Of a stretch of DNA of 64,000 nt, positions 18,475 through 30,595 are shown in pieces. The notes beneath the pieces were generated by a model. The model saw only the letters and a program-made list of their open reading frames with translations, did not search any database and was not told the DNA's origin. The stretch comes from Archangium violaceum (GTDB lineage: Bacteria > Myxococcota > Myxococcia > Myxococcales > Myxococcaceae), in assembly GCF_016859125.1 (NCBI RefSeq), contig NZ_CP069338.1, positions 2,170,001 to 2,234,000 on the forward strand. The letters are read 5' to 3'. Made by a program: the position numbers and the translations under genes. Position 1 is the first letter of the stretch, and each line of letters begins with the position of its first letter.

Positions 18475-20100
18475 TCAGAAGAACTCTCCGGCCATCCGGC
18501 GGCCGTGCACTCCAAAATTCTCGTCTGTCCCAGATAGCACTTCGTATCGCAGTCCACCTGGCCTGGGATCCACCACATCGACCCCTCGCTGGTTCCAGAG
18601 CAGGTGCCCGAACTCTTCCTTCATCTGTCGATGTACCCAGCGCCCCCTGGCCAGCCCCTCCAGATGAGCAACACTCCGGAGGTTCCCCGCCTTGCGCACC
18701 TTCTCGATCACCTTGCGCTCATCCGGGGAGAGCTGATGGGGCCCCCATTGTCTTGCGATCCGCTCGGCTGCGGCTTGCAACTCGTCTCCCAGCTTGTCCT
18801 CCGCCGGGATGTCGCCAAGCCACTTTCCGCGTGGCAGGTGCCACCTCTGGCCGTTACCGAGGATGACCTGATGATTGCCTCCCCGATGACGAATCGCGAT
18901 GGTCCCTGAGTGGCATTGAGGAGCTACCGCCGAACTGTTCTGGCTGAACATCGCCCCAGCCAGAGGGCCCTGGGGTGATGTGACGACAGCGAGGGCATGG
19001 TCCGACAAGACCACCGTCTCCACCGCCACCACATGCTCCACTGCCTCCGACAGCGTTCCCCGGAAGCCCTGGGCCTTCCACTGCGCCTGCATCGAGCCGT
19101 ATCTCGGCAATGAACGAATGCGCGCAGCCGCGTCTCCCAGCGTGCGTCCGCTCAACGTCGCCACAGCCAGAACCAACGCCCGAGCCGCGTCCGTGCCAAT
19201 TCGCCTCCCGAACACCTCCCCCGCTTCGCGCAACTCCGCGAACGTGGTGGCCTCGTAGGCCCGGTGCGCCATTGCTGCCCACCCATCCACAAGCCCCCAC
19301 ACAGCGTCCACGCCCAGCCATGCCACCAGCAGTACCGATAGCGCCGCGGCTGCTGTTTTGAGGATGGGCTCGGGCACCAGCCAGAGCGCGAGGTACATCC
19401 CAGCAGCCCACACCAGCGACGAGAGCACCGCCTGGGGGCTCAACTCCCGACCCAGGGCATCCCGCGTCTCCTCCAGGACGGAGCCGAAGGCCAGAGCGAG
19501 CGCGAGCGTGCGCTGATCATCCGTACGCAGATAGGGCCCGTCAGTGAGGAGGCCCAGACAATCACCACCGCCGTGCCTCTCGCACCACCTCAGATATCTG
19601 GCCCGGAGCGCAGCCTCTGCCTGGGGGACGAGCGGGCCCTTGTCGTTCAGGGGGACCAGCCTGTAGACCCGACCGCGATACACCTCTGCGAGCAGTTCCT
19701 CCTCTGGCATGGACTGGAACAGCCGCTGCGCGGCCTCTTGCGGCGTCCCCTCTATTCGCAGCCCGTCCCCGAGCTGCTGCACCGCCCGGCGGAACTCCGT
19801 CCCCCTGACGGCTACCGCCCGTGTAGAGCCGCCGGGCTCGAGCACGTCCACCTCGACGACGCTCACCTGCTCGAGCTGGGGGACGGCCCGGCGGGATTCC
19901 CGCGCTGAAGCTTCCGTCGGTGGAGTCAGCGGCGGAGGGCCGCCCCCGCCCACTCGACTACCCATCGGAGTTCGGGTGACACACGCGGCGTGGAGGACGA
20001 GGACGATAAGGGCCAGAGCACCTGTGCCTCCCCACCGCAGTGGACCTGACGAGCCCCACCGAATGGCGGCGCACACGGGACTGCGGTTCTGCTTCGCCAT
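18475..20100 (-). CDS. Sit-type lipoprotein polymorphic toxin (SitA-like)
   Basis: 541 residues. An N-terminal signal peptide ends in the lipobox LHAAC (Cys about residue 40). A Gly/Pro-rich linker follows, then a helical middle with hydrophobic segments around residues 215-260, and a C-terminal module starting near residue 390. The last ~75 residues (GRWVHRQMKEEFGHLLWN, VDVVDPRPGGLRYEVLSGT) would be the toxin head; the spaced Asp and Glu recall nuclease-like folds but I cannot name the activity. Myxobacterial SitA proteins are lipoprotein toxins passed to kin by TraA/B outer-membrane exchange and paired with a downstream SitI, as here. Assignment to the SitA5-like family is from memory of the family. 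It starts 16 bases after the SIR2-like gene. Confidence 0.65.
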   Translation of the reverse strand: MAKQNRSPVCAAIRWGSSGPLRWGGTGALALIVLVLHAACVTRTPMGSRVGGGGPPPLTPPTEASARESRRAVPQLEQVSVVEVDVLEPGGSTRAVAVRGTEFRRAVQQLGDGLRIEGTPQEAAQRLFQSMPEEELLAEVYRGRVYRLVPLNDKGPLVPQAEAALRARYLRWCERHGGGDCLGLLTDGPYLRTDDQRTLALALAFGSVLEETRDALGRELSPQAVLSSLVWAAGMYLALWLVPEPILKTAAAALSVLLVAWLGVDAVWGLVDGWAAMAHRAYEATTFAELREAGEVFGRRIGTDAARALVLAVATLSGRTLGDAAARIRSLPRYGSMQAQWKAQGFRGTLSEAVEHVVAVETVVLSDHALAVVTSPQGPLAGAMFSQNSSAVAPQCHSGTIAIRHRGGNHQVILGNGQRWHLPRGKWLGDIPAEDKLGDELQAAAERIARQWGPHQLSPDERKVIEKVRKAGNLRSVAHLEGLARGRWVHRQMKEEFGHLLWNQRGVDVVDPRPGGLRYEVLSGTDENFGVHGRRMAGEFF

Positions 20101-20116: not shown

Positions 20117-21109
20117 TTACGGAGTCATCGGACGCTGATGACCCACGGCAGCGAGCTCTCGCACGCGAGCCACGAGCGGCTCGCCATACTCCGCGTAGGT
20201 CAGGAGCTCCAGGGGAAGCCCCTGCAGCCGTGCACGCATGCGGTCACGCTCGGCTCCGCGAACGAGCACATAGTGAGGGCCCCCGGCACCCCGGAATGTC
20301 TCCTCGAGCCACCGGAGTTGATCGCCGAAGGTCGTATCCTCGAAGCTGAAGCCGATGAAGAGCAGCGTGTGTGACGCGAGCAGGACGCGCAACGAGGTGA
20401 GCGCGGCCTCATAGTGAGAGCCTCCCGCATCATTCGTTGCATAGAGGCGGCTGTATCCATCGGGCGTGAGGATCAGATCCGCCGCGTTCGCGATCGTGCC
20501 ATGCAAATGCCAGATCGTCGGGTAGTCGAGGTGGTCGCGCAGCAGCCTCACGAGCTCCGCGGGCGCCTCGATATCCCAGGAGCGCAGATCGTCCCGCTCG
20601 GGACATGCCCAATGCAAGACGCGGTCGTAATTCGTCGTGAGCACGAGCTTGCTGCCGAGCTCCCAGATGGCGCGTGGCAACGCGAGGCTCTCTTCCAGGG
20701 CACGGCCTCGGGGCGGATCGAATACCTCGCTGAGCACCTTGTACCAGGTCGGGCCAAGGCCCTCTCGCGCAGCGCGGGCCGCATCGAGGTAGTTCGGCAC
20801 CTTCTTCGACAGCGCCCCCCGTACCGCCATCGCGTCGCCGGTAAGCCCTTCCTCATCCAGCCTCTGCGCCACCATTCCAAGCAGAGTTCCCCAGCTGGGG
20901 AAGAGGCGCTCACCTGGTCGTGCTGCGTCCAGAACCGCCATTGACGCACCCGCGCCGACGAAGGGGATGACTCGCCCCTCCATGAGCGCCATACGCAATC
21001 CCGAGGGAACGAGCGGGCTCGTCGGCGAGGCGGTGGGCGGAGGCTGAGCGACCCGTGCGAGCCCGATCATGGCCACGGTCGGAGCCCGCCTGGACAACGG
21101 GTTCGACAT
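20117..21109 (-). CDS. SIR2-like domain protein, possibly the C-terminal part of the FHA-GGDEF protein
   Basis: About 330 residues from the ATG at 21109. The SIR2_2-type fold begins at about residue 38: VIPFVGAGAS (NAD loop), LVLTTNYDRVLHW, IWHLHGTIANAADLIL (catalytic His in HLHG) and LLFIGFSFEDTTF. Such domains act as NADases in several defence systems. The ATG overlaps the stop of the upstream FHA-GGDEF frame (TGATG), which could mean coupling, but no ribosome-binding site is seen. The same frame stays open and coding-like (high GC3) up to about 21325, where the other frame loses coding character, so the two may be one protein split by a one-base indel. Directly upstream of the Sit-like toxin gene. 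Confidence 0.7.
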   Translation of the reverse strand: MSNPLSRRAPTVAMIGLARVAQPPPTASPTSPLVPSGLRMALMEGRVIPFVGAGASMAVLDAARPGERLFPSWGTLLGMVAQRLDEEGLTGDAMAVRGALSKKVPNYLDAARAAREGLGPTWYKVLSEVFDPPRGRALEESLALPRAIWELGSKLVLTTNYDRVLHWACPERDDLRSWDIEAPAELVRLLRDHLDYPTIWHLHGTIANAADLILTPDGYSRLYATNDAGGSHYEAALTSLRVLLASHTLLFIGFSFEDTTFGDQLRWLEETFRGAGGPHYVLVRGAERDRMRARLQGLPLELLTYAEYGEPLVARVRELAAVGHQRPMTP

Positions 21110-23649
21110 CACCACCGTGTCAGCGGGCGGAGACGAGACGACCGGCGCGGCCATCGGCACGGCACTCGAGGTGGGTTGCCGCTCGGACGGAGGATTCGGC
21201 GCGGGAATGGCTTGGGTGGCCTCGAAGAAGAGCCGGGCCCGGGTGTCGAAAGGAACGCGAATCGAGGCCTTGTGGTTGGAGGTGACGCCCCGGACGCGGG
21301 CCTCCGCTCCCTTGGGGCGCCCAGCCAGAGTCCCTCGGCCAGGAACACCTCGACCCGGCCACAGCTCTCGCAAGTCCGGGCCGCCACGATCGGTGCGAGG
21401 CACAGCGGCGCACGGCCCTGGACGAGCAGATAACACCAATCGCGCGCCAGCCGCGCCTCGAGGCGCTCATGGCCGATGGGAAAGTGTTCGGTGGCGCCCT
21501 GGTGGCCGTAGAGCGCGTAGCGGACGCCGTCGTCATCCGCTTCCAGCGATTCGATCTCCGCCACGCTGACGAGCCGAGCCTGCTTGAGTGGCTCGAGGAG
21601 CTTGAGGAACTCATCCAGGAGCTTTCCGAACACCTCTTCCTGCTCGCGATACGCATCGTCGGACAGGGTGATGCCGTGGCCGATGAGCCGCTCCCGCTCG
21701 AGGACGGCCTCACGTACCCGCTCCGACAGAGCGGAGCGTTGGCCATCGTTTCTCACCAGGCTCCGCAGCGCGCCCATCACGGGTTCACCCGACGACCTGG
21801 GAAGGAGCACGGCGAGCTGGACGGCCAGCTCTTCCCAGGTGCCCAGAGGGAGTGGCTCGCCGGTGTGGCTGGCGATCAGGGCCGCGGCATCGTCGCGAGC
21901 CCGCGCGTGCTCGCCATCACGCAGGAGAGCAAGCTCCAGGGCCACCACGAAGCGGAGCGACGACTCCAGCGCATCCACGATGGCCTTGAAGCGGGTGAAT
22001 GCCGTGCGCTGGGCGAGGACGAGCGCACGCGGCGCGGAAAGGGGGAACGGCAACTCCGAACGAGAATCCAGCAAGACCGCGCGCCCCGCGTCATCAAGGA
22101 GTTGGACTGCGAGGCGATCCAGGCATCGCTCTCCCGAGGCCACGACAACCTCCGGGGGCAGAACCGCTGTGCGCAGCGAGCGCGTCAGTCTCCCACTGAC
22201 TGCATCCGGAACAGGCCGCGCCACCCAGGCGGCCCTGACCGCATCCACCACGGCACGGGCCCGCTCCTCACCACTCCTCACCTCGAGTGCCGCGAGGACA
22301 TAACGGTCCCGCCAGTTTCCCAGAAGATCCGCGGGGCCAATGACTCTTTCGACCTCCTGCTCCAACTCGAAGGTCCACGTCTCGAAGCTCGATGAGCCCA
22401 GGAGCTCGATGATGCTGCGCTCGTCTGCTACCTCGAAAGCCAGCACGGGACCAGGAGGAGATCTGTCGAGGTTGCGTCGCACGAGTGCCATTCCGTCGAT
22501 GGGCCGACGGGGTTCACGCACCAGCGACGTCACCGAGGCCAGAGTGGTCGCAACTGGGTAGATCGTGCCAACCACCCGGTTACGTCCGCTCTTCTTGGCT
22601 TTGTAGAGATTGGCGTCTGCGACCTTGATGAGTTGCAGGGGCTCCATCATCTCCGGCGTCATGTTCGCCACCCCCAGCGACAGGGTGACCGGGATATCCT
22701 GGCTCTCGAAGGAGAAGTGCTTCTTCTCGATGGTCTGGCGGATCTTCTCCGCGAAAATGAGTGTCCTGTCCGCCCCGTCCTCGGGGATGACGAGCGCGAA
22801 CTCCTCGCCGCCGTAGCGCGCGAAGCACTGCTCCTTGCGCACCATCCGCTTGAGGGTCTGCGCCAGCTCGCGCAGCACGTAGTCACCCGCAAGGTGCCCG
22901 TGGACATCGTTGATCTTCTTGAAGGAGTCGATGTCGAACATCATCAGCGTCAGCGGGCGCCCGTAACGGTGGCACCGCCCCATCTCCCTCTCCAGGTACT
23001 CGAGGAAGTAGCGCTTGTTGTTCACCCCGGTGAGCCCATCCACGATCGTCAGCGTGTAGATGGTCTCGTGGTACTGCAGTTCCACGTTGTCACCGGTGAG
23101 GAACTTGAAGATGGAGCCGCCCATCTTGATGAGGTCACCGCTGCGCAGCGGGGTCTCCTGCGTCACCTCATGGTCGTTCAGGTAGGTACCGTTGGTGGAG
23201 CCCAGATCCTGCACGAACATCCTCCCCTGCCTGCGGAGGATGCGCGCGTGCTTGCGCGAGACGTTGTCGAGGTCCACCACGATGTGGTTGCCTTCTTCTC
23301 GCCCGATGTTGAGCTCGATCTCATGGAGCGTGTACTTCTTCCCCAACTCCGGCCCGTGGATCTGCACGATGCAGAATTCCGCATCGACTGGACTCGCCAG
23401 ATCCTTGATCGAGGATACCGTAGTGGCACGAGTCTCGTCAGAGTTCGAAGGGAACCGTGCGGCTCTCCTTAACAGCCTCTGAGCGGGGCGGCGATGGGGA
23501 GGGGTGCGCAGCAATCCCAGCGTCAGCAATCCCCTTGCTCTCCGTTGCCGCGGCTTTCGCTGCCGGGTTGGAAGTAATCGCACGGTATTGGGCTGTCGGC
23601 TCAAGATCGATCTTTGCTTGCGACTCCGCTGCGGTCGGCTCTGGCGCAT
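21109..23649 (-). CDS. FHA-GGDEF diguanylate cyclase with long C-terminal extension
   Basis: The coherent coding region starts near 23440. It has an FHA domain (IGREEGNHIVVDLDNVSRKH, LGSTNGTYLND), then a GGDEF domain with an active-site GGEEF and the DGLTGVNNKRYF start; the inhibitory-site position reads RKEQ, so product inhibition is probably lost. A degenerate second GGDEF-like stretch (FEVADERSIIELLG) and a helical region with a CESCG zinc-ribbon-like motif follow. The last ~65 residues before the stop are Arg/Pro/Ser-rich and look out of frame; the natural continuation lies in the SIR2 frame after the C-run at about 21320. No convincing start codon is found: an AAGGAG at 23465-23470 has no ATG, GTG or TTG at the right distance. 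The coordinates give the longest open frame. Confidence 0.7.
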   Translation of the reverse strand: MRQSRPQRSRKQRSILSRQPNTVRLLPTRQRKPRQRRARGLLTLGLLRTPPHRRPAQRLLRRAARFPSNSDETRATTVSSIKDLASPVDAEFCIVQIHGPELGKKYTLHEIELNIGREEGNHIVVDLDNVSRKHARILRRQGRMFVQDLGSTNGTYLNDHEVTQETPLRSGDLIKMGGSIFKFLTGDNVELQYHETIYTLTIVDGLTGVNNKRYFLEYLEREMGRCHRYGRPLTLMMFDIDSFKKINDVHGHLAGDYVLRELAQTLKRMVRKEQCFARYGGEEFALVIPEDGADRTLIFAEKIRQTIEKKHFSFESQDIPVTLSLGVANMTPEMMEPLQLIKVADANLYKAKKSGRNRVVGTIYPVATTLASVTSLVREPRRPIDGMALVRRNLDRSPPGPVLAFEVADERSIIELLGSSSFETWTFELEQEVERVIGPADLLGNWRDRYVLAALEVRSGEERARAVVDAVRAAWVARPVPDAVSGRLTRSLRTAVLPPEVVVASGERCLDRLAVQLLDDAGRAVLLDSRSELPFPLSAPRALVLAQRTAFTRFKAIVDALESSLRFVVALELALLRDGEHARARDDAAALIASHTGEPLPLGTWEELAVQLAVLLPRSSGEPVMGALRSLVRNDGQRSALSERVREAVLERERLIGHGITLSDDAYREQEEVFGKLLDEFLKLLEPLKQARLVSVAEIESLEADDDGVRYALYGHQGATEHFPIGHERLEARLARDWCYLLVQGRAPLCLAPIVAARTCESCGRVEVFLAEGLWLGAPRERRPASGASPPTTRPRFAFLSTPGPGSSSRPPKPFPRRILRPSGNPPRVPCRWPRRSSRLRPLTRW

Positions 23650-26292: not shown

Positions 26293-26395
26293 GCGTCCCC
26301 CCCGGCACCCACACTCCCGGGGAGCGGAGACGTCCGGGGGGCAGGCGCGGACGGGCAGTATGCCATGGGCTTCCGGGCGTCAGCCATGTACCCCA

Positions 26396-26423
26396 GGACA
26401 ATGGACCCAGGGACAATGGACCC
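26396..26423. repeat. Two-copy 15-bp direct repeat
   Basis: GGACAATGGACCC occurs at 26396-26408 and 26411-26423, in the gap between the small lipoprotein stop and the kinase start. It may be a duplicated binding site or slippage product. Confidence 0.5.
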
Positions 26424-26471
26424 CGGGATACACCCAGGTGCCCGATTCCAGGCGCGTGTCAACTCACCTGC

Positions 26472-26897
26472 TCAATAATCCACGGCCAGGATGCGCCACC
26501 CACGAACATCCACGGCATAGGTTGCGCCTACGTCCAGAACGGGATCGCGCAGGGGACATGCATTGGGGTCGAGAACGAAGCGGACGAACACGACCCCCTC
26601 GGGTCCTGGAAAGGCGGAGACGTTGAAGGACTCACGTCGGTACAGGCACACCTCTTCCGGAGTGGCCCCGGAATGGGGTCGGGTGTTCCGAGGACGGAAG
26701 TCATCCATGGCGAGCTGAATCGCCGTGGCCGTGACCCCCGGTATATTCAAGCGTGACGCTTCCGGGATGATGAACGGGAACTGCACCCGCGCCGCCTCCT
26801 CGGGAGGCGCATGCTCGGGACGATAGCGACCGAACTGCTGGAAGAAAGTGCAGGCGGGGAGAAACACGAAGAGGAAGGGCAGCATCGGGCGCTTCAT
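26472..26897 (-). CDS. Small lipoprotein of unknown function
   Basis: 141 residues with a signal peptide ending in a lipobox (FVFLPAC, Cys16). The mature part includes a compact beta-rich region (VVFVRFVLDPNACPLRDPVLDVG). Cys residues at three sites could form one disulphide. CGGAGAC precedes the start. It follows the JAMM-like lipoprotein gene by 57 bases on the same strand and probably belongs to the same operon as the TonB-dependent receptor. Confidence 0.65.
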   Translation of the reverse strand: MKRPMLPFLFVFLPACTFFQQFGRYRPEHAPPEEAARVQFPFIIPEASRLNIPGVTATAIQLAMDDFRPRNTRPHSGATPEEVCLYRRESFNVSAFPGPEGVVFVRFVLDPNACPLRDPVLDVGATYAVDVRGWRILAVDY

Positions 26898-26954
26898 GGA
26901 TGTCTCCGCTCAAGATGACAGGTCAGCCCAGGTGCGCAGGCGGGGAAGTGGCAG

Positions 26955-27580
26955 CTATCCGCCAGGAGGGCTCACGACTCCGGTGGCCTTGTTCTCGGGC
27001 TTGATGATCCCGATGAGCACCCATTCCCTTCCCCGCCGCTCGTACACCTCACCCGGACGCGTCACGCCCAGGTAGGGAATGAGTTTCATGACACGGCACG
27101 TGGTGTCGAACTGGAGTCGAATGGACCAGAGCTGGTTCTTCTCCAGCATGTCCTCCTCGGACATTCGGGAGTAGGGCCAGGGGTGGCTGTGAAAATCGGC
27201 GAGCACCGAGACGTGTCCGCGAGGGTCCTTCACATACCGGGGGGTCTGCACATCTTCCGCTTCGTCGGGTTGATCAACACCGCGGAGCCAAGGGGCGAAG
27301 GATGGCTGGCGTGATAGATGCCATCTCCAAGTGAGTAGATGGCTCCGCAGTACTCCTGCCCGTATTCCCGCCGTTGGACGCGAGGCAGCCTCATCACGGC
27401 GGGACACAACTGATCGATGACCGCATCGGCATCATGGGATGACTTGATCTCATCCCAAGGACCACGCACCCAGACCTTCCCCTCGGGGTTGTAACCGTAA
27501 TTGCCCGTACCGCCCCCCAGGCCTGGACTGCTCGCGCAACCCAGGAGCCAGAAACACGCGCATCCTGCTCGAAACCGCAT
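26955..27580 (-). pseudogene. JAMM/MPN+-type metallopeptidase lipoprotein, frameshifted at a C-run
   Basis: The first frame (27580 to 27230) starts with a lipoprotein signal peptide (FWLLGCASS) and reaches NPTKRKMCRPP. At the CCCCCC run near 27238-27243 the second frame takes over (RYVKDPRGHVSVLADFHSHPWPYS...) and ends at 26955. Joined, the product is about 208 residues and carries a JAMM zinc motif: an upstream Glu in GQEYCGAIY, HSHP, then SEED giving H-x-H-P-x6-S-x2-D. JAMM enzymes are zinc isopeptidases or peptidases. One extra C would restore the frame, so this is either a recent mutation or a sequencing error. It starts 13 bases after the TonB-dependent receptor stop. Confidence 0.65.
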
Positions 27581-27593
27581 ACAGTCCCGTCTC

Positions 27594-30503
27594 TCAGTAC
27601 CGGCCCTTGAGGCCGAGGATGGGCAGCACGATGGGCAGGCCCGTGGGCTTCTTCTCCAGGGGAATGCTCCCGCCGCCGATGTAGTCGAAGCTGACCACCT
27701 CCTGGCTGATCGTCACGTTGAGCATGTCCAGATAGGCCTCGAGCGTGAAGGTCTCATAGGCCCACGCCTTGGACAGCCGCAGATCGAAGCGGAAGAAGGA
27801 CGGCAACCGGTCCGCCTTGTCCCGGCTCACGGGTATCCAACCCGGCCGTCCGGAGCCATCCGTGCCCTCCACCATCGTGCGGCTGGTGAGGTTGCCCGAC
27901 TCCGGACGGCCGGAGTTGAAGTGCAGCACCCCGCCCAGGGTGACGTTGTTGGAGAACTTGTAGCTGAGCACCAGATTCGCGACGTGCGTCTGGTCGAAGA
28001 CGTAGGGCAGGTACGCCTCGGCCTCGCCCACCGGCTGGCCGCTCGAGTCGTACTGCGTGAAGCGCGTGAAGCGCGTGCTGCGCTGCAGCGAGTAGGACAG
28101 CCAGCCGAACCAGTTGCCTCCCAGCGGGCGGCGGATGAGCAGCTCCAACCCGTACGACATGCCGTGGCTGCGCAGGTCCGGCAACTCGAAGTCGGGGATG
28201 GGCTCCTCCTGCTTCATCCCCCGCACGAGACCCCGCCCCCCAGGCCCCCCCGGCCTCCCGGGCTCCACGTCGGGCCCGCCCGGCGGATCGACGACGATGG
28301 GCGGCTCCTCCAAGCTGAAGGGCGTCAGCTCCACCGTGCGCAGCATCGGGTTGAAGTAGCCCTCGAGGCTCACGTCGAAGCCCCACAGGTCCTTGTACTC
28401 CGCGCCCGCGGAGATCTGCAGGGCCTGCTGCAGCCCCTGGTTCAGCGCCGCGATGTCGATGATGGGCAGGCTGATGAGCGTGGTGGGCGGCTGGTGGTAG
28501 AGGCCCACACCGCCCTTGAGCGTGAGCTGCTCGCTCATCTTCCGGCGCACGGAGAGGCGCGGCTCCACCGCGACCTCGTTGACGCCGCCGGACAGGTGGT
28601 AGTTGTCCACGCGCAGGCCGGGCACCACCGTCCACCCCGGCTCCTTCTCCCACAGCAGCTCCGCCCACAGCCCGCTGAAGGTGGCGAGCGCCACGGGCAA
28701 TTCGAGGCGCGTCCTCTGGAGCGGGCCACCTCCCTCCGGACGGGAGCTCTGCTCGAGGGCCACCATCGCGCGCTTGCTGTCCACGTCCAGGCCGCTGCGC
28801 AGGGAGAGTCCCTCGCCCAGCTTCCGCTGGTAGCCCATCCGCGCGGTGAGGTCGCGCTGGTCGATGTCGATGGTGGTGCCCCCTTCTCGCGCGCTCTCGC
28901 CGCCGATGGAGAAGCGGTCCAGCCCCCACGTGACACCCGCCTCCAGCTCGCCGCCTCCCACCGGGTGGCGGTAGCGCAGATCCACCCGGTGGAAGAGGAT
29001 GGCCTGCAGCGCGGTGGTGCCGGAGTCGCTCGTCGCCTGCGTGCCGAAGGTGTCCGAGGAGCCGAAGGCGAAGAGGCGCAGCCGGCCCGGCCCCACCTCC
29101 TGCTCGATGCGGGCCTGGTAGTCATAGAAGTCCAGCACCAGCTTCGAGTCGTTCGAGCCAGGCGGTTGCAGCGCGTTGGCCGCGAGGGCGATCAACCACG
29201 GCGTATACGACAGGCGGCCCGCCACCGAGACGTTGGTGCCGGTGGACTGGAAGGGGTACTCGATGAAGAGGCCCGCGTTGAGGAAGTCCGCGTAGGCACT
29301 GCCATGGACCCGGTCATCGCGCGGGCGGGTCAACCGGCCCTCCACCGCGCCGCCCGTGAGCCGCCCGTACTGGGTGGACGGGTTGCCCGCGTAGAAGTCG
29401 ATGGTGTCGATGAAGTCCGGGTGGATGACGGCGGGCCCGAGGAAGAGGTGGAAGAGGATGGGGACGCGGATGCCGTCGAGGAAGTAGCCGGTGGAGGCCG
29501 GCTGGCTGCCGCGCACCACCGGGTACGAAATGCCCGAGAGCATGCTGTTCACACCGGGCATCAGCATCATCACCCGGAAGGGATCCCCCATCGTGCCGGG
29601 GATCTCCCGCAGCTCCGCGTCGTGCAGCGTGACGCGGGACACCTCGGTGCGCTCGCGGTCGCCGCGCACCACCGTCTCGTAGGGGTTCACCACCAGCGGC
29701 TCCAGGCCGTACACCACCTCGAGCGTCTCGCCCTGACGGACCTCCTCGCGGAAGGCGTTGGGCTTGTGGCCGGGAGCGGTGACGCGCACCCACTGGGTGC
29801 CCGGGGGCAGCCGCGCCTCGAAGCGCCCATCCGGCCCCGTCTCCACGGGCATGTCCCGCGCCGCGTCCGACACCAACACCGCGCCCACCAGCGGCTGGCG
29901 GTTGCCCTTGGCTCGCACCAGGCCGCGCAGCGTGACGGGCCGCGAGGCCGGATCCTCCACGGCCACCACCTGCTGGGGCGCCTCGAAGCGGTACTCGAAC
30001 TGGAGCCGCACCTGCACCGGCACGCCGTCCACCCTCGCGGGGGAGAAGCGCAGCCCGGGCGCGGCATGGAGCGCGGCCTCGTCCAACAGCGGGTGCAGGG
30101 CCTCGAGCAGCCGGACCTCGGCCACCTCACCCTGCTCGTCCAGGAGCAGTTCCAACCGCACCGTGCCCGCCACCGGCTGCGCGGCGAGCGCCTCGGGGTA
30201 GCGCGCGGGCGAGTCCGCCAACAGCTGGGGCGCCTCGAAGCGTGGCTGCGTGCCCCCGTCTCCCTCCCCCGCTCCTTCCAGGGCGAAGCCGCCATCGGAG
30301 CGCTGGAGGTCCACTTCCGTCCGCACCAGGCCCGCGTCGGGAGCATCGGCGAGGGGCGCGTCCGGAATGTTCTGGAGACCGGGAGGTGTGGTGGGCGCCT
30401 GCGCTCGCGCCGGGGCGAGGGGGAGCAACCCGGCCAGCAGCAGCACGCCCAGGGCCACCCGCGGCCCCCACGACGCGTTCAACCGCGACTGCTCGTTCAC
30501 CAT
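27594..30503 (-). CDS. TonB-dependent outer-membrane receptor with N-terminal TonB-like and carboxypeptidase-regulatory domains
   Basis: 969 residues. The signal peptide (GVLLLAGLLPLAPARAQA) is followed at about 90-190 by a TonB C-terminal-like domain (YPEALAAQPVAGTVRLELLL, RFSPARVDGVPVQVRLQFEY), then at ~200-280 a carboxypeptidase regulatory-like (Ig-type) domain (LRGLVRAKGNRQPLVGAVL). The plug starts around 295 (SRVTLHDAELREIPGTMGDP, VVRGSQPASTGYFLDGIRVP) and a long beta-barrel runs to the C-terminus. The ATG at 30503 is preferred over an upstream start because the signal peptide begins there. Having both a TonB-like domain and a receptor in one chain is a Deltaproteobacterial pattern. The substrate is unknown; the two downstream lipoprotein genes are likely partners. 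Confidence 0.88.
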   Translation of the reverse strand: MVNEQSRLNASWGPRVALGVLLLAGLLPLAPARAQAPTTPPGLQNIPDAPLADAPDAGLVRTEVDLQRSDGGFALEGAGEGDGGTQPRFEAPQLLADSPARYPEALAAQPVAGTVRLELLLDEQGEVAEVRLLEALHPLLDEAALHAAPGLRFSPARVDGVPVQVRLQFEYRFEAPQQVVAVEDPASRPVTLRGLVRAKGNRQPLVGAVLVSDAARDMPVETGPDGRFEARLPPGTQWVRVTAPGHKPNAFREEVRQGETLEVVYGLEPLVVNPYETVVRGDRERTEVSRVTLHDAELREIPGTMGDPFRVMMLMPGVNSMLSGISYPVVRGSQPASTGYFLDGIRVPILFHLFLGPAVIHPDFIDTIDFYAGNPSTQYGRLTGGAVEGRLTRPRDDRVHGSAYADFLNAGLFIEYPFQSTGTNVSVAGRLSYTPWLIALAANALQPPGSNDSKLVLDFYDYQARIEQEVGPGRLRLFAFGSSDTFGTQATSDSGTTALQAILFHRVDLRYRHPVGGGELEAGVTWGLDRFSIGGESAREGGTTIDIDQRDLTARMGYQRKLGEGLSLRSGLDVDSKRAMVALEQSSRPEGGGPLQRTRLELPVALATFSGLWAELLWEKEPGWTVVPGLRVDNYHLSGGVNEVAVEPRLSVRRKMSEQLTLKGGVGLYHQPPTTLISLPIIDIAALNQGLQQALQISAGAEYKDLWGFDVSLEGYFNPMLRTVELTPFSLEEPPIVVDPPGGPDVEPGRPGGPGGRGLVRGMKQEEPIPDFELPDLRSHGMSYGLELLIRRPLGGNWFGWLSYSLQRSTRFTRFTQYDSSGQPVGEAEAYLPYVFDQTHVANLVLSYKFSNNVTLGGVLHFNSGRPESGNLTSRTMVEGTDGSGRPGWIPVSRDKADRLPSFFRFDLRLSKAWAYETFTLEAYLDMLNVTISQEVVSFDYIGGGSIPLEKKPTGLPIVLPILGLKGRY

Positions 30504-30595
30504 GCGCACCCGTCCATGCTGGGAGGGGGGATGATGACGCCACCCCCCCAGGACCAAGACAAGCCCTGACTACCATGGAGGGGCTCGCCTGCCCG

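What the first reader, a model, noticed from the sequence alone, without database searches (positions are those of the whole stretch)
26955..27580. Lipoprotein JAMM/MPN+ metallopeptidase
Seen: a lipobox start and, across a frame change, an Glu...HSHP...SEED zinc motif matching H-x-H-P-x6-S-x2-D. Known: JAMM enzymes are zinc isopeptidases or peptidases, normally cytoplasmic. A lipid-anchored one next to a TonB-dependent receptor is unusual. Inference: an envelope peptidase cooperating with the receptor.
Basis: partly seen in the sequence, partly recalled or inferred. Interest (0 to 1): 0.5.

Follow-up and report, generated by a model that had tools for sequence, protein, structure and literature searches.

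The report
Broken JAMM lipoprotein with immunity-like partner
In soil myxobacteria this gene belongs to a family of fat-anchored, envelope-facing proteins with the zinc site of JAMM enzymes that almost always sit beside a second small lipoprotein resembling an inhibitor, and in this genome the enzyme gene is broken while the partner gene is intact.

Summary
On the minus strand, 27580 to 26955, lie a lipobox, a frame change at a C-run near 27236-27244, and a canonical JAMM motif (Glu 27353-27355; HSHPWPYSRMSEED 27150-27191). Homologues ("J") are mostly intact single-frame lipoproteins of about 210 aa, found in one family among 195 genomes of the phylum; 96 of 97 intact copies keep E, H, H, S/T, D. 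A confident model has the JAMM fold. The TonB-receptor link fails: no relative of the receptor lies in the stretches read around 120 J loci, and the five other genus genomes held keep receptor and kinase without J between them. The real partner is the next gene (26472-26897, "P"), another lipoprotein, intact beside J in 118 of 120 loci, modelled as a cystatin/PepSY-like fold. In these loci J is disrupted at about 17 independent places, P at none. Best reading: an envelope JAMM hydrolase with a cognate inhibitor (immunity-type) lipoprotein, present here as an accessory two-gene cassette whose enzyme is broken or mis-sequenced. It resembles Tox-JAB-2/DUF4329 toxins and SitAI cassettes but fails a SitA feature. 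No activity is tested. Nine searches of one open-licence library listed no description of this pair.

The parts
26955..27580 (-). J: JAMM lipoprotein gene, split into two frames (27580->about 27241 and about 27260->26955)
   Evidence: the halves hit complementary parts of the family profile; most homologues are single-frame (97 of 120)
27536..27547 (-). lipobox LLGC (signal peptide II)
   Evidence: translation; the corresponding Cys is invariant in the 60 aligned homologues
27353..27355 (-). predicted catalytic Glu (QEYCG)
   Evidence: Glu in 96 of 97 intact homologues
27236..27244 (-). C-run at which the frame changes
27150..27191 (-). JAMM zinc motif HSHPWPYSRMSEED
   Evidence: in 97 intact homologues both His 97, Pro 95, Ser or Thr 97, Asp 97
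26472..26897 (-). P: partner lipoprotein, 141 aa, intact; predicted cystatin/PepSY-like fold
   Evidence: profile match E 2e-58; directly downstream of J in 118 of 120 homologous loci; model pLDDT 90.5; fold comparison
26400..27593 (.). approximate extent of the J-P cassette that lies between receptor and kinase genes here and not in five relatives
   Evidence: DNA alignment to five relatives breaks at 27593/27594 and at 26302-26399
27594..30557 (-). TonB-dependent receptor: neighbour only, not part of the module
   Evidence: Pfam TonB_C, Plug, beta-barrel; orthologue without J in 5 of 5 genus relatives

Best explanation
J is an exported, lipid-anchored JAMM-fold zinc hydrolase, most likely a peptidase acting in the periplasm or at the outer membrane. 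P, the lipoprotein encoded directly downstream, is its cognate inhibitor and works as an immunity-type protein. The two genes move and duplicate as a cassette in one family of myxobacteria. J can be lost while P is kept, because P still protects against J from sister cells or from paralogues in the same genome. In this window the cassette lies between a TonB receptor gene and a histidine kinase gene that are adjacent in relatives; J is frame-broken (real or sequencing error) and P is intact. Shown here: motif, fold prediction, lipoboxes, conserved cysteines, linkage, presence/absence at this site, asymmetric decay. Inferred: catalysis, substrate, inhibition, delivery to other cells.
For: Motif: E+H+H+S/T+D in 96 of 97 intact J. 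Model of homologue L054: pLDDT 90.8, pTM 0.84; nearly all of the 50 PDB entries listed are JAMM/MPN proteins, complexes holding one, or RadC, best PfJAMM1 5ld9 Z 7.7, rmsd 3.6, 116 aligned (a few titles, such as 2kks and 9ea4, do not say so). Pfam at E up to 1: Prok-JAB in 51 of 60 and DUF4329 in 33 of 60 members. Export: a lipobox plus start was found in 89 of 97 intact J and 123 of 129 P by my rule; J has four further Cys kept in 96-97 of 97; P has two invariant Cys besides the lipobox one. Linkage: P follows J on the same strand in 118 of 120 loci, J stop to P domain at most 57 bp, median 15; 17 loci hold a second P domain, fused to the first in 7. P fold: designed cystatin 4r80 Z 7.3, YpeB 5boi 6.5, YpmB 2gu3 6.0, a vibriolysin chain 3nqz 4.8, a chain of the Tae3-Tai3 effector-immunity complex 4hz9 4.5 (that YpeB, YpmB and the vibriolysin stretch are PepSY/propeptide domains is recalled). 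Asymmetry: J frameshifted, stopped or truncated in 20 of 121 loci with the window (4 more ambiguous), at least 17 independent; P intact in 119 of 121, absent in two, broken in none. In the cut-off listings, in-frame stops occur in 14 J rows and 1 P row. J scars upstream of P in 5 of 19 hand-picked J-less P loci. Selection: dN/dS below 0.5 for both genes in all 54 orthologue pairs with J intact (J at most 0.31, P at most 0.49). Precedent: Tox-JAB domains are predicted toxins with immunity partners, one (Imm65) a lipoprotein (PMC3482391, passages); VgrG2b is a periplasmic metallopeptidase toxin with an envelope immunity protein (PMC6899460, passages).
Against: No toxicity, inhibition or zinc has been measured. 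Purifying selection and orthologues at fixed loci fit an ordinary envelope enzyme as well. P's fold match is weak (Z at most 7.3, a range the tool calls common), amine oxidase domains rank among the best rows, and such folds serve many functions. The excess of P over J (491 vs 219 matches) is partly distant J missed at the cut-off: in this genome 6 of 8 P matches have a J-like gene beside them when looked for more loosely. One P elsewhere has an in-frame stop. 14 of the 19 J-less P loci showed no scar that I accepted. No secretion or receptor gene was seen to recur beside J in the 20 named loci clustered. The frame break may be a sequencing error.
Confidence: 0.55

Rival explanations
1. J is an ordinary envelope JAMM peptidase (processing or turnover of envelope proteins) and P is its chaperone, adaptor or activator; there is no conflict role.
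For: Purifying selection on both genes; orthologous loci kept across species; no hypervariable toxin domain; constant gene order.
Against: P is kept where J is broken or deleted, odd for a dedicated chaperone; second P domains at 17 of 120 loci; patchy presence (58 of 96 genomes of the family) and presence/absence at this site look accessory.
Confidence: 0.27
2. J is a nuclease-type JAB toxin, as proposed for RadC and toxin JABs, delivered into the cytoplasm of recipients; P acts elsewhere or blocks entry.
For: Zhang et al. 2012 argue toxin JAB domains may be nucleases (PMC3482391, passages); RadC is among the structural matches (2qlc Z 5.8).
Against: Both J and P are lipoproteins with conserved extra cysteines, so both should sit in the oxidising envelope, away from nucleic acids (inference).
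Confidence: 0.1
3. One reading: an envelope peptidase cooperating with the adjacent TonB-dependent receptor.
For: In this genome J starts 13 bases after the receptor's stop codon, same strand.
Against: No relative of this receptor in the stretches fetched around 120 J loci; 5 of 5 genus relatives have the receptor without J.
Confidence: 0.02
4. J is a non-catalytic, binding-only MPN protein.
For: A few members have changed motif parts: HSHS in 2 (L060, L062), Glu to Ala in 1 (L093), and one residue more before the Asp in L104, L110, L112, L113, L115 and L127.
Against: 96 of 97 intact copies keep all five residues.
Confidence: 0.06

Closest known systems
Tox-JAB-2 / DUF4329 (PF14220) domain of polymorphic toxins
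   Same: JAB superfamily; E, H[ST]H, S, D motif; reported with immunity genes (PMC3482391, passages); 33 of 60 J members hit DUF4329 weakly
   Different: J is a small stand-alone lipoprotein; the survey lists Tox-JAB-2 with T2SS, T6SS, T7SS and TcdB/TcaC-type delivery and RHS repeats. P is a cystatin-like lipoprotein without a Pfam match, whereas the partner listed for Tox-JAB-2 is Imm-NTF2 family 2
Tox-JAB-1 / Imm65
   Same: JAB toxin with a lipoprotein immunity protein
   Different: listed from Bacteroidetes with RHS repeats; P gave no Imm65 match in Pfam (I did not verify that Imm65 is in that library)
SitA/SitI toxins of myxobacterial outer-membrane exchange
   Same: myxobacterial lipoprotein followed by a partner gene, many paralogues per genome, extra partner copies (passages of PMC5562445 and PMC8546572, part 1 of PMC12077181)
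   Different: J has no separate escort domain and no NCBIfam SitA-type match; SitA1 and SitA3 toxin domains act in the cytoplasm, while P is itself exported
VgrG2b / PA0261 and Tpe1 / Tpi1 metallopeptidase effector-immunity pairs
   Same: metallopeptidase acting in the periplasm, neutralised by an envelope-located partner, in some species an outer-membrane lipoprotein (PMC6899460, passages)
   Different: HEXXH metallopeptidase, VgrG2b being delivered by type VI secretion; not a JAMM lipoprotein
PfJAMM1, AF2198, Rpn11, AMSH (JAMM/MPN+ proteins)
   Same: fold and zinc motif
   Different: cytoplasmic, several acting on ubiquitin-like tails (recalled); J is exported, with four conserved cysteines besides the lipobox one

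Membership tests
JAMM/MPN+ (JAB) superfamily | E ... H-x-H-P-x6-S-x2-D motif | tested here: met
   window; homologues: 96 of 97 intact with E, H, H, S/T, D; six have one residue more before the Asp
JAMM/MPN+ (JAB) superfamily | JAMM fold | tested here: met
   AlphaFold model of homologue L054 (pLDDT 90.8); nearly all of the 50 listed VIA rows are JAMM/MPN, complexes with one, or RadC, best Z 7.7. Foldseek E-values are weak (best 0.046). The window's own broken product was not modelled
JAMM/MPN+ (JAB) superfamily | zinc-dependent hydrolase activity | not testable with these tools
   no experiment
Prok-JAB PF14464 | score above the curated cut-off | tested here: not met
   window C half 16 bits and L054 17.4 bits against a cut-off of 25; 51 of 60 members match at E up to 1, best E 2.3e-6, bits of the others not shown
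DUF4329 / Tox-JAB-2 | profile match and E, H[ST]H, S, D motif | tested here: inconclusive
   33 of 60 members match DUF4329 at E up to 1, best 1.8e-4; no DUF4329 match for the window's own halves; motif met, with x of HxH being S or T in 89 of 97
Polymorphic toxin / effector-immunity pair | partner gene directly downstream, same strand | tested here: met
   118 of 120 loci
Polymorphic toxin / effector-immunity pair | partner retained when toxin is lost | tested here: met
   J disrupted in 20 of 121 loci, no broken P in them; J scars beside P in 5 of 19 J-less loci; one P elsewhere has a stop
Polymorphic toxin / effector-immunity pair | toxicity neutralised by the partner | not testable with these tools
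   needs co-expression
SitA (outer-membrane exchange toxins) | N-terminal escort domain (up to about 375 aa) plus C-terminal toxin domain | tested here: not met
   J is about 208 aa and JAMM matches span residues 49-206 of the model; no SitA-type model among NCBIfam matches at E up to 1 (not verified that each SitA model is in that library)
SitA (outer-membrane exchange toxins) | TraAB-dependent transfer between cells | not testable with these tools
   needs co-culture
Cystatin/PepSY-like fold (for P) | helix packed on a four-strand antiparallel sheet | tested here: inconclusive
   model pLDDT 90.5 with helices and four strands; best rows include cystatin/PepSY-type domains and amine oxidase domains, Z at most 7.3; no sequence family

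The most novel reading that the evidence does not exclude
J and P are an undescribed kin-discrimination or competition cassette of myxobacteria: an outer-membrane-anchored JAMM peptidase, handed to neighbours with outer-membrane content (as SitA lipoproteins are), that cleaves envelope proteins unless the recipient holds the cognate cystatin-fold lipoprotein P. It would be a JAMM enzyme working outside the cytoplasm, with a protein inhibitor of its own.
Probability: 0.3. Interest if true: 0.78.

Novelty: new variant of a known kind. Interest (0 to 1): 0.55.

Why it matters
JAMM enzymes are best known as intracellular ubiquitin-type isopeptidases. The 2012 survey of toxin JAB domains noted that earlier prokaryotic JAB domains were intracellular and suggested that the toxin versions may be nucleases (PMC3482391, passages). 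A lipid-anchored, cysteine-bearing JAMM family paired with a lipid-anchored, inhibitor-like partner makes the question testable: what does a JAMM enzyme cut in a bacterial envelope, and does the partner block it? If the pair is a weapon, it would add an enzyme class to the myxobacterial kin-discrimination arsenal.

Tried and rejected
Receptor partnership: tested by synteny and by search of 120 loci, rejected. Mobile-element carriage: no match to J homologue L054 in 50,697 phage or 72,556 plasmid records at E up to 0.01; two IMG/VR contigs carry J followed by P, host or prophage origin not settled. Programmed frameshift: thought unlikely, since 97 of 120 homologous loci read J in one frame. Spread beyond the family: of 195 genomes of the phylum, 57 matched at E up to 1e-5, all in the window's own family (at most 15 candidates per genome were scored, and other phyla were not searched with the profile). 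Pfam and NCBIfam gave no name for P. Sequence search of the PDB found no significant relative of J (best 2kks, E 0.14) or P (best E 0.21). A link of P genes to SitAI6-type loci was seen at one place and in no other locus held. TraA/TraB co-occurrence was not tested. The excess of P over J (491 vs 219) was not used as evidence of orphans, because distant J are missed. Weaker tblastn hits upstream of P in L194, L198 and L201 were not accepted as J scars, on identity and position; the E-values there are not corrected for 60 queries. Literature: nine searches listed no paper describing this pair; they cover open-licence PMC papers only. Seen of each paper: passages of PMC3482391, PMC10469887, PMC5562445, PMC8546572 and PMC6899460; part 1 of 2 of PMC12077181; all others search listings only.

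Full report
What is there. On the minus strand, the ORF starting at 27580 reads MRFRAGCACFWLLGCASS..., a lipoprotein signal with lipobox LLGC, and runs through QEYCG before leaving frame at a C-run around 27236-27244.

Homologues. The C half found matches in 49 of 96 genomes of the same family; a profile found 58 of 96, distant copies included. Among 195 genomes of the phylum, 57 matched at E up to 1e-5, all in that family and in 8 of 90 genera. Named records with homologues include Archangium, Myxococcus, Corallococcus, Pyxidicoccus, Citreicoccus and Hyalangium, and one labelled Comamonas. I call the family J. I fetched 120 J loci, not all that one search listed, and read them with profiles. 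In 97 of 120 J is a full single-frame gene. Across these 97, Glu is kept in 96, both His in 97, Pro in 95, Ser or Thr in 97 and Asp in 97; six have one residue more before the Asp. A start plus lipobox was found by my rule in 89 of the 97. In the 60-sequence alignment the lipobox Cys and four more Cys (C60, C79, C111, C162) are invariant; in the 97 they are kept in 96 or 97. That suits an exported, disulphide-bearing protein (inference).

Fold. An AlphaFold2 model of the intact homologue L054 on that alignment has pLDDT 90.8 and pTM 0.84. Foldseek's best hits are Pyrococcus JAMM1 and other JAMM proteins but with weak E-values (best 0.046). The second alignment gives PfJAMM1 5ld9 at Z 7.7 (rmsd 3.6, 116 aligned), and nearly all of the 50 listed entries are JAMM/MPN proteins, complexes that hold one, or RadC (a few titles, such as 2kks, 9ea4 and 9is6, do not say so). 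Z below 8 alone would be modest; together with the motif I take membership of the JAMM superfamily as firm. Pfam at E up to 1 gives Prok-JAB in 51 of 60 members and DUF4329 in 33 of 60, best E 2.3e-6 and 1.8e-4; the window's C half and L054 are below the Prok-JAB cut-off.

The receptor is incidental. None of the 120 fetched J stretches (about 2 kb on each side, less at contig ends) has a relative of the window's TonB-dependent receptor. The five other genomes of the genus that are held have the receptor, HTH gene, response regulator and histidine kinase in the same order, with no J or P match between receptor and kinase. DNA alignment to those relatives stops at 27593/27594 on one side and 26302-26399 on the other, so about 1.2 kb containing J and P is extra here: an insertion, or less simply a loss in five relatives. 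Two of the relatives carry a different insert at the same place.

The real partner. Clustering of neighbours in the 20 named loci plus the window showed one recurrent gene just downstream: in the window it is 26472-26897, 141 aa, intact, also starting with a lipoprotein signal. I call it P. In the 120-locus set P follows J on the same strand in 118; the exceptions are a contig end (L170) and a wrecked J (L167). J's stop and P's domain lie at most 57 bp apart in these 118, median 15. In 17 loci there is a second P domain, fused to the first in 7. P has no named family in Pfam or NCBIfam and two invariant Cys besides the lipobox one. Its model (pLDDT 90.5, pTM 0.78) resembles designed cystatin 4r80 (Z 7.3), amine oxidase N-terminal stretches (up to 6.8), YpeB (6.5), YpmB (6.0), a vibriolysin chain (4.8) and a chain of the Tae3-Tai3 effector-immunity complex (4.5). 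That several of these are cystatin- or PepSY-like is recalled. They are weak matches of a small fold, consistent with an inhibitor but not proof.

Distant pairs. The window's own genome has further, distant J-like genes next to P-like genes at about 0.17, 1.25, 2.15, 2.34, 3.10 and 4.29 Mb; one lacks the HxH stretch (2.15 Mb) and one lacks a normal N-terminus (4.29 Mb). Profile comparison supports relatedness for five of the distant J (98.5% probability, E 1.7e-15) and for five distant P (99.1%, E 1.6e-18). Two P matches (4.45 and 7.79 Mb) have no recognisable J.

Asymmetric decay. J is split by frameshift or stop, or truncated, in 20 of 121 loci including the window; four more (L086, L097, L135, L170) are ambiguous or cut by a contig end. 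P is intact in 119 of 121, absent in two, and broken in none. Grouping loci that share both flanks leaves 16 independent J-broken loci besides the window. If breaks fell in proportion to length (211 and 139 profile positions), 17 of 17 in J would have a chance of about 2 in 10,000. The loci were found through J, so P losses beside a good J would have been seen, while complete J losses would not. The cut-off listings point the same way: in-frame stops in 14 J rows and in 1 P row, the latter showing that P can break too. Of 20 hand-picked P genes without J (one, L196, at a contig edge and dropped), J scars that I accept lie just upstream in L190, L195, L200, L202 and L203; weaker hits in L194, L198 and L201 were not accepted. 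In L202 the J tail is fused to the preceding transporter frame (transporter name recalled). Retention of the partner after loss of the enzyme is what immunity genes do. Both genes are nevertheless under purifying selection: dN/dS stays below 0.5 in the 54 orthologue pairs with both J intact, of 92 pairs sharing flanks (J at most 0.31, P at most 0.49). One pair (L083, L111) shares flanks at 86.7% but has J only 54% and P 43% identical, as if the cassette had been replaced.

How it probably works. J reaches the envelope as a lipoprotein and acts as a zinc hydrolase, more likely on proteins than nucleic acids given its location (inference). P sits in the same compartment and restrains it. The precedents are the predicted Tox-JAB toxins with immunity partners, one of them a lipoprotein (PMC3482391, passages), and VgrG2b, a metallopeptidase toxic in the periplasm and neutralised by an envelope protein (PMC6899460, passages). 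Delivery by outer-membrane exchange, the SitA route (PMC5562445, PMC8546572, passages), is an attractive but untested guess; J lacks the SitA escort domain.

The window copy. Both halves of J are well conserved and P is intact, so the break is recent or a sequencing error in a C homopolymer. The neighbouring receptor, kinase and HTH genes show no frame trouble against five relatives. Either way the gene as held does not encode the joined product.

Verdict. I rate it a new variant of a known kind. The toxin-immunity reading is the best supported but rests on comparative evidence alone.

Noticed in passing
L216:6741-8423 (own genome, about 4.447 Mb): A P gene without J follows a 183 aa exported AHH-like ORF (name from recall; no Pfam hit) and a double-CXXCG-type ORF (PF09535 E 5.8e-5, just below cut-off; Imm11 E 0.023), i.e. 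a SitAI6-like locus.
   Followed up: partly
L083, L111: Loci with flanks 86.7% identical but J 54% and P 43% identical: possible cassette replacement.
   Followed up: no
L237, L238 (gap between receptor and kinase): Two relatives carry another insert at the same intergenic site, including ORFs that look like a PD-(D/E)XK/Rpn-type transposase (recall; not scanned).
   Followed up: no
L032:5288-6184, L035:5222-6184; also L064, L085, L098, L145, L149, L159, L165: P-type proteins with two P domains in one chain, about 300 aa in L032 and L035.
   Followed up: partly
L241, L242: Two IMG/VR viral contigs (28.7 and 24.3 kb) hold a J followed by P; whether these are prophages or host DNA was not examined.
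   Followed up: partly
window 20117-21439 (-): 440 aa ORF that looks like a SIR2-type domain protein (recall; not scanned), next to a 541 aa ORF at 18475-20100 with no Pfam match at E up to 1.
   Followed up: no
L202, upstream of P: The last residues of a J gene appear fused in frame to a cation-efflux-type transporter ORF, a likely scar of J deletion (transporter name from recall).
   Followed up: partly
L047 (BNCN01000009.1): A record titled Comamonas sp. carries J and two P; its contig has the same length (427,423) as contig C9 of G066, a genome placed in the window's own family, so the title is probably wrong.
   Followed up: partly
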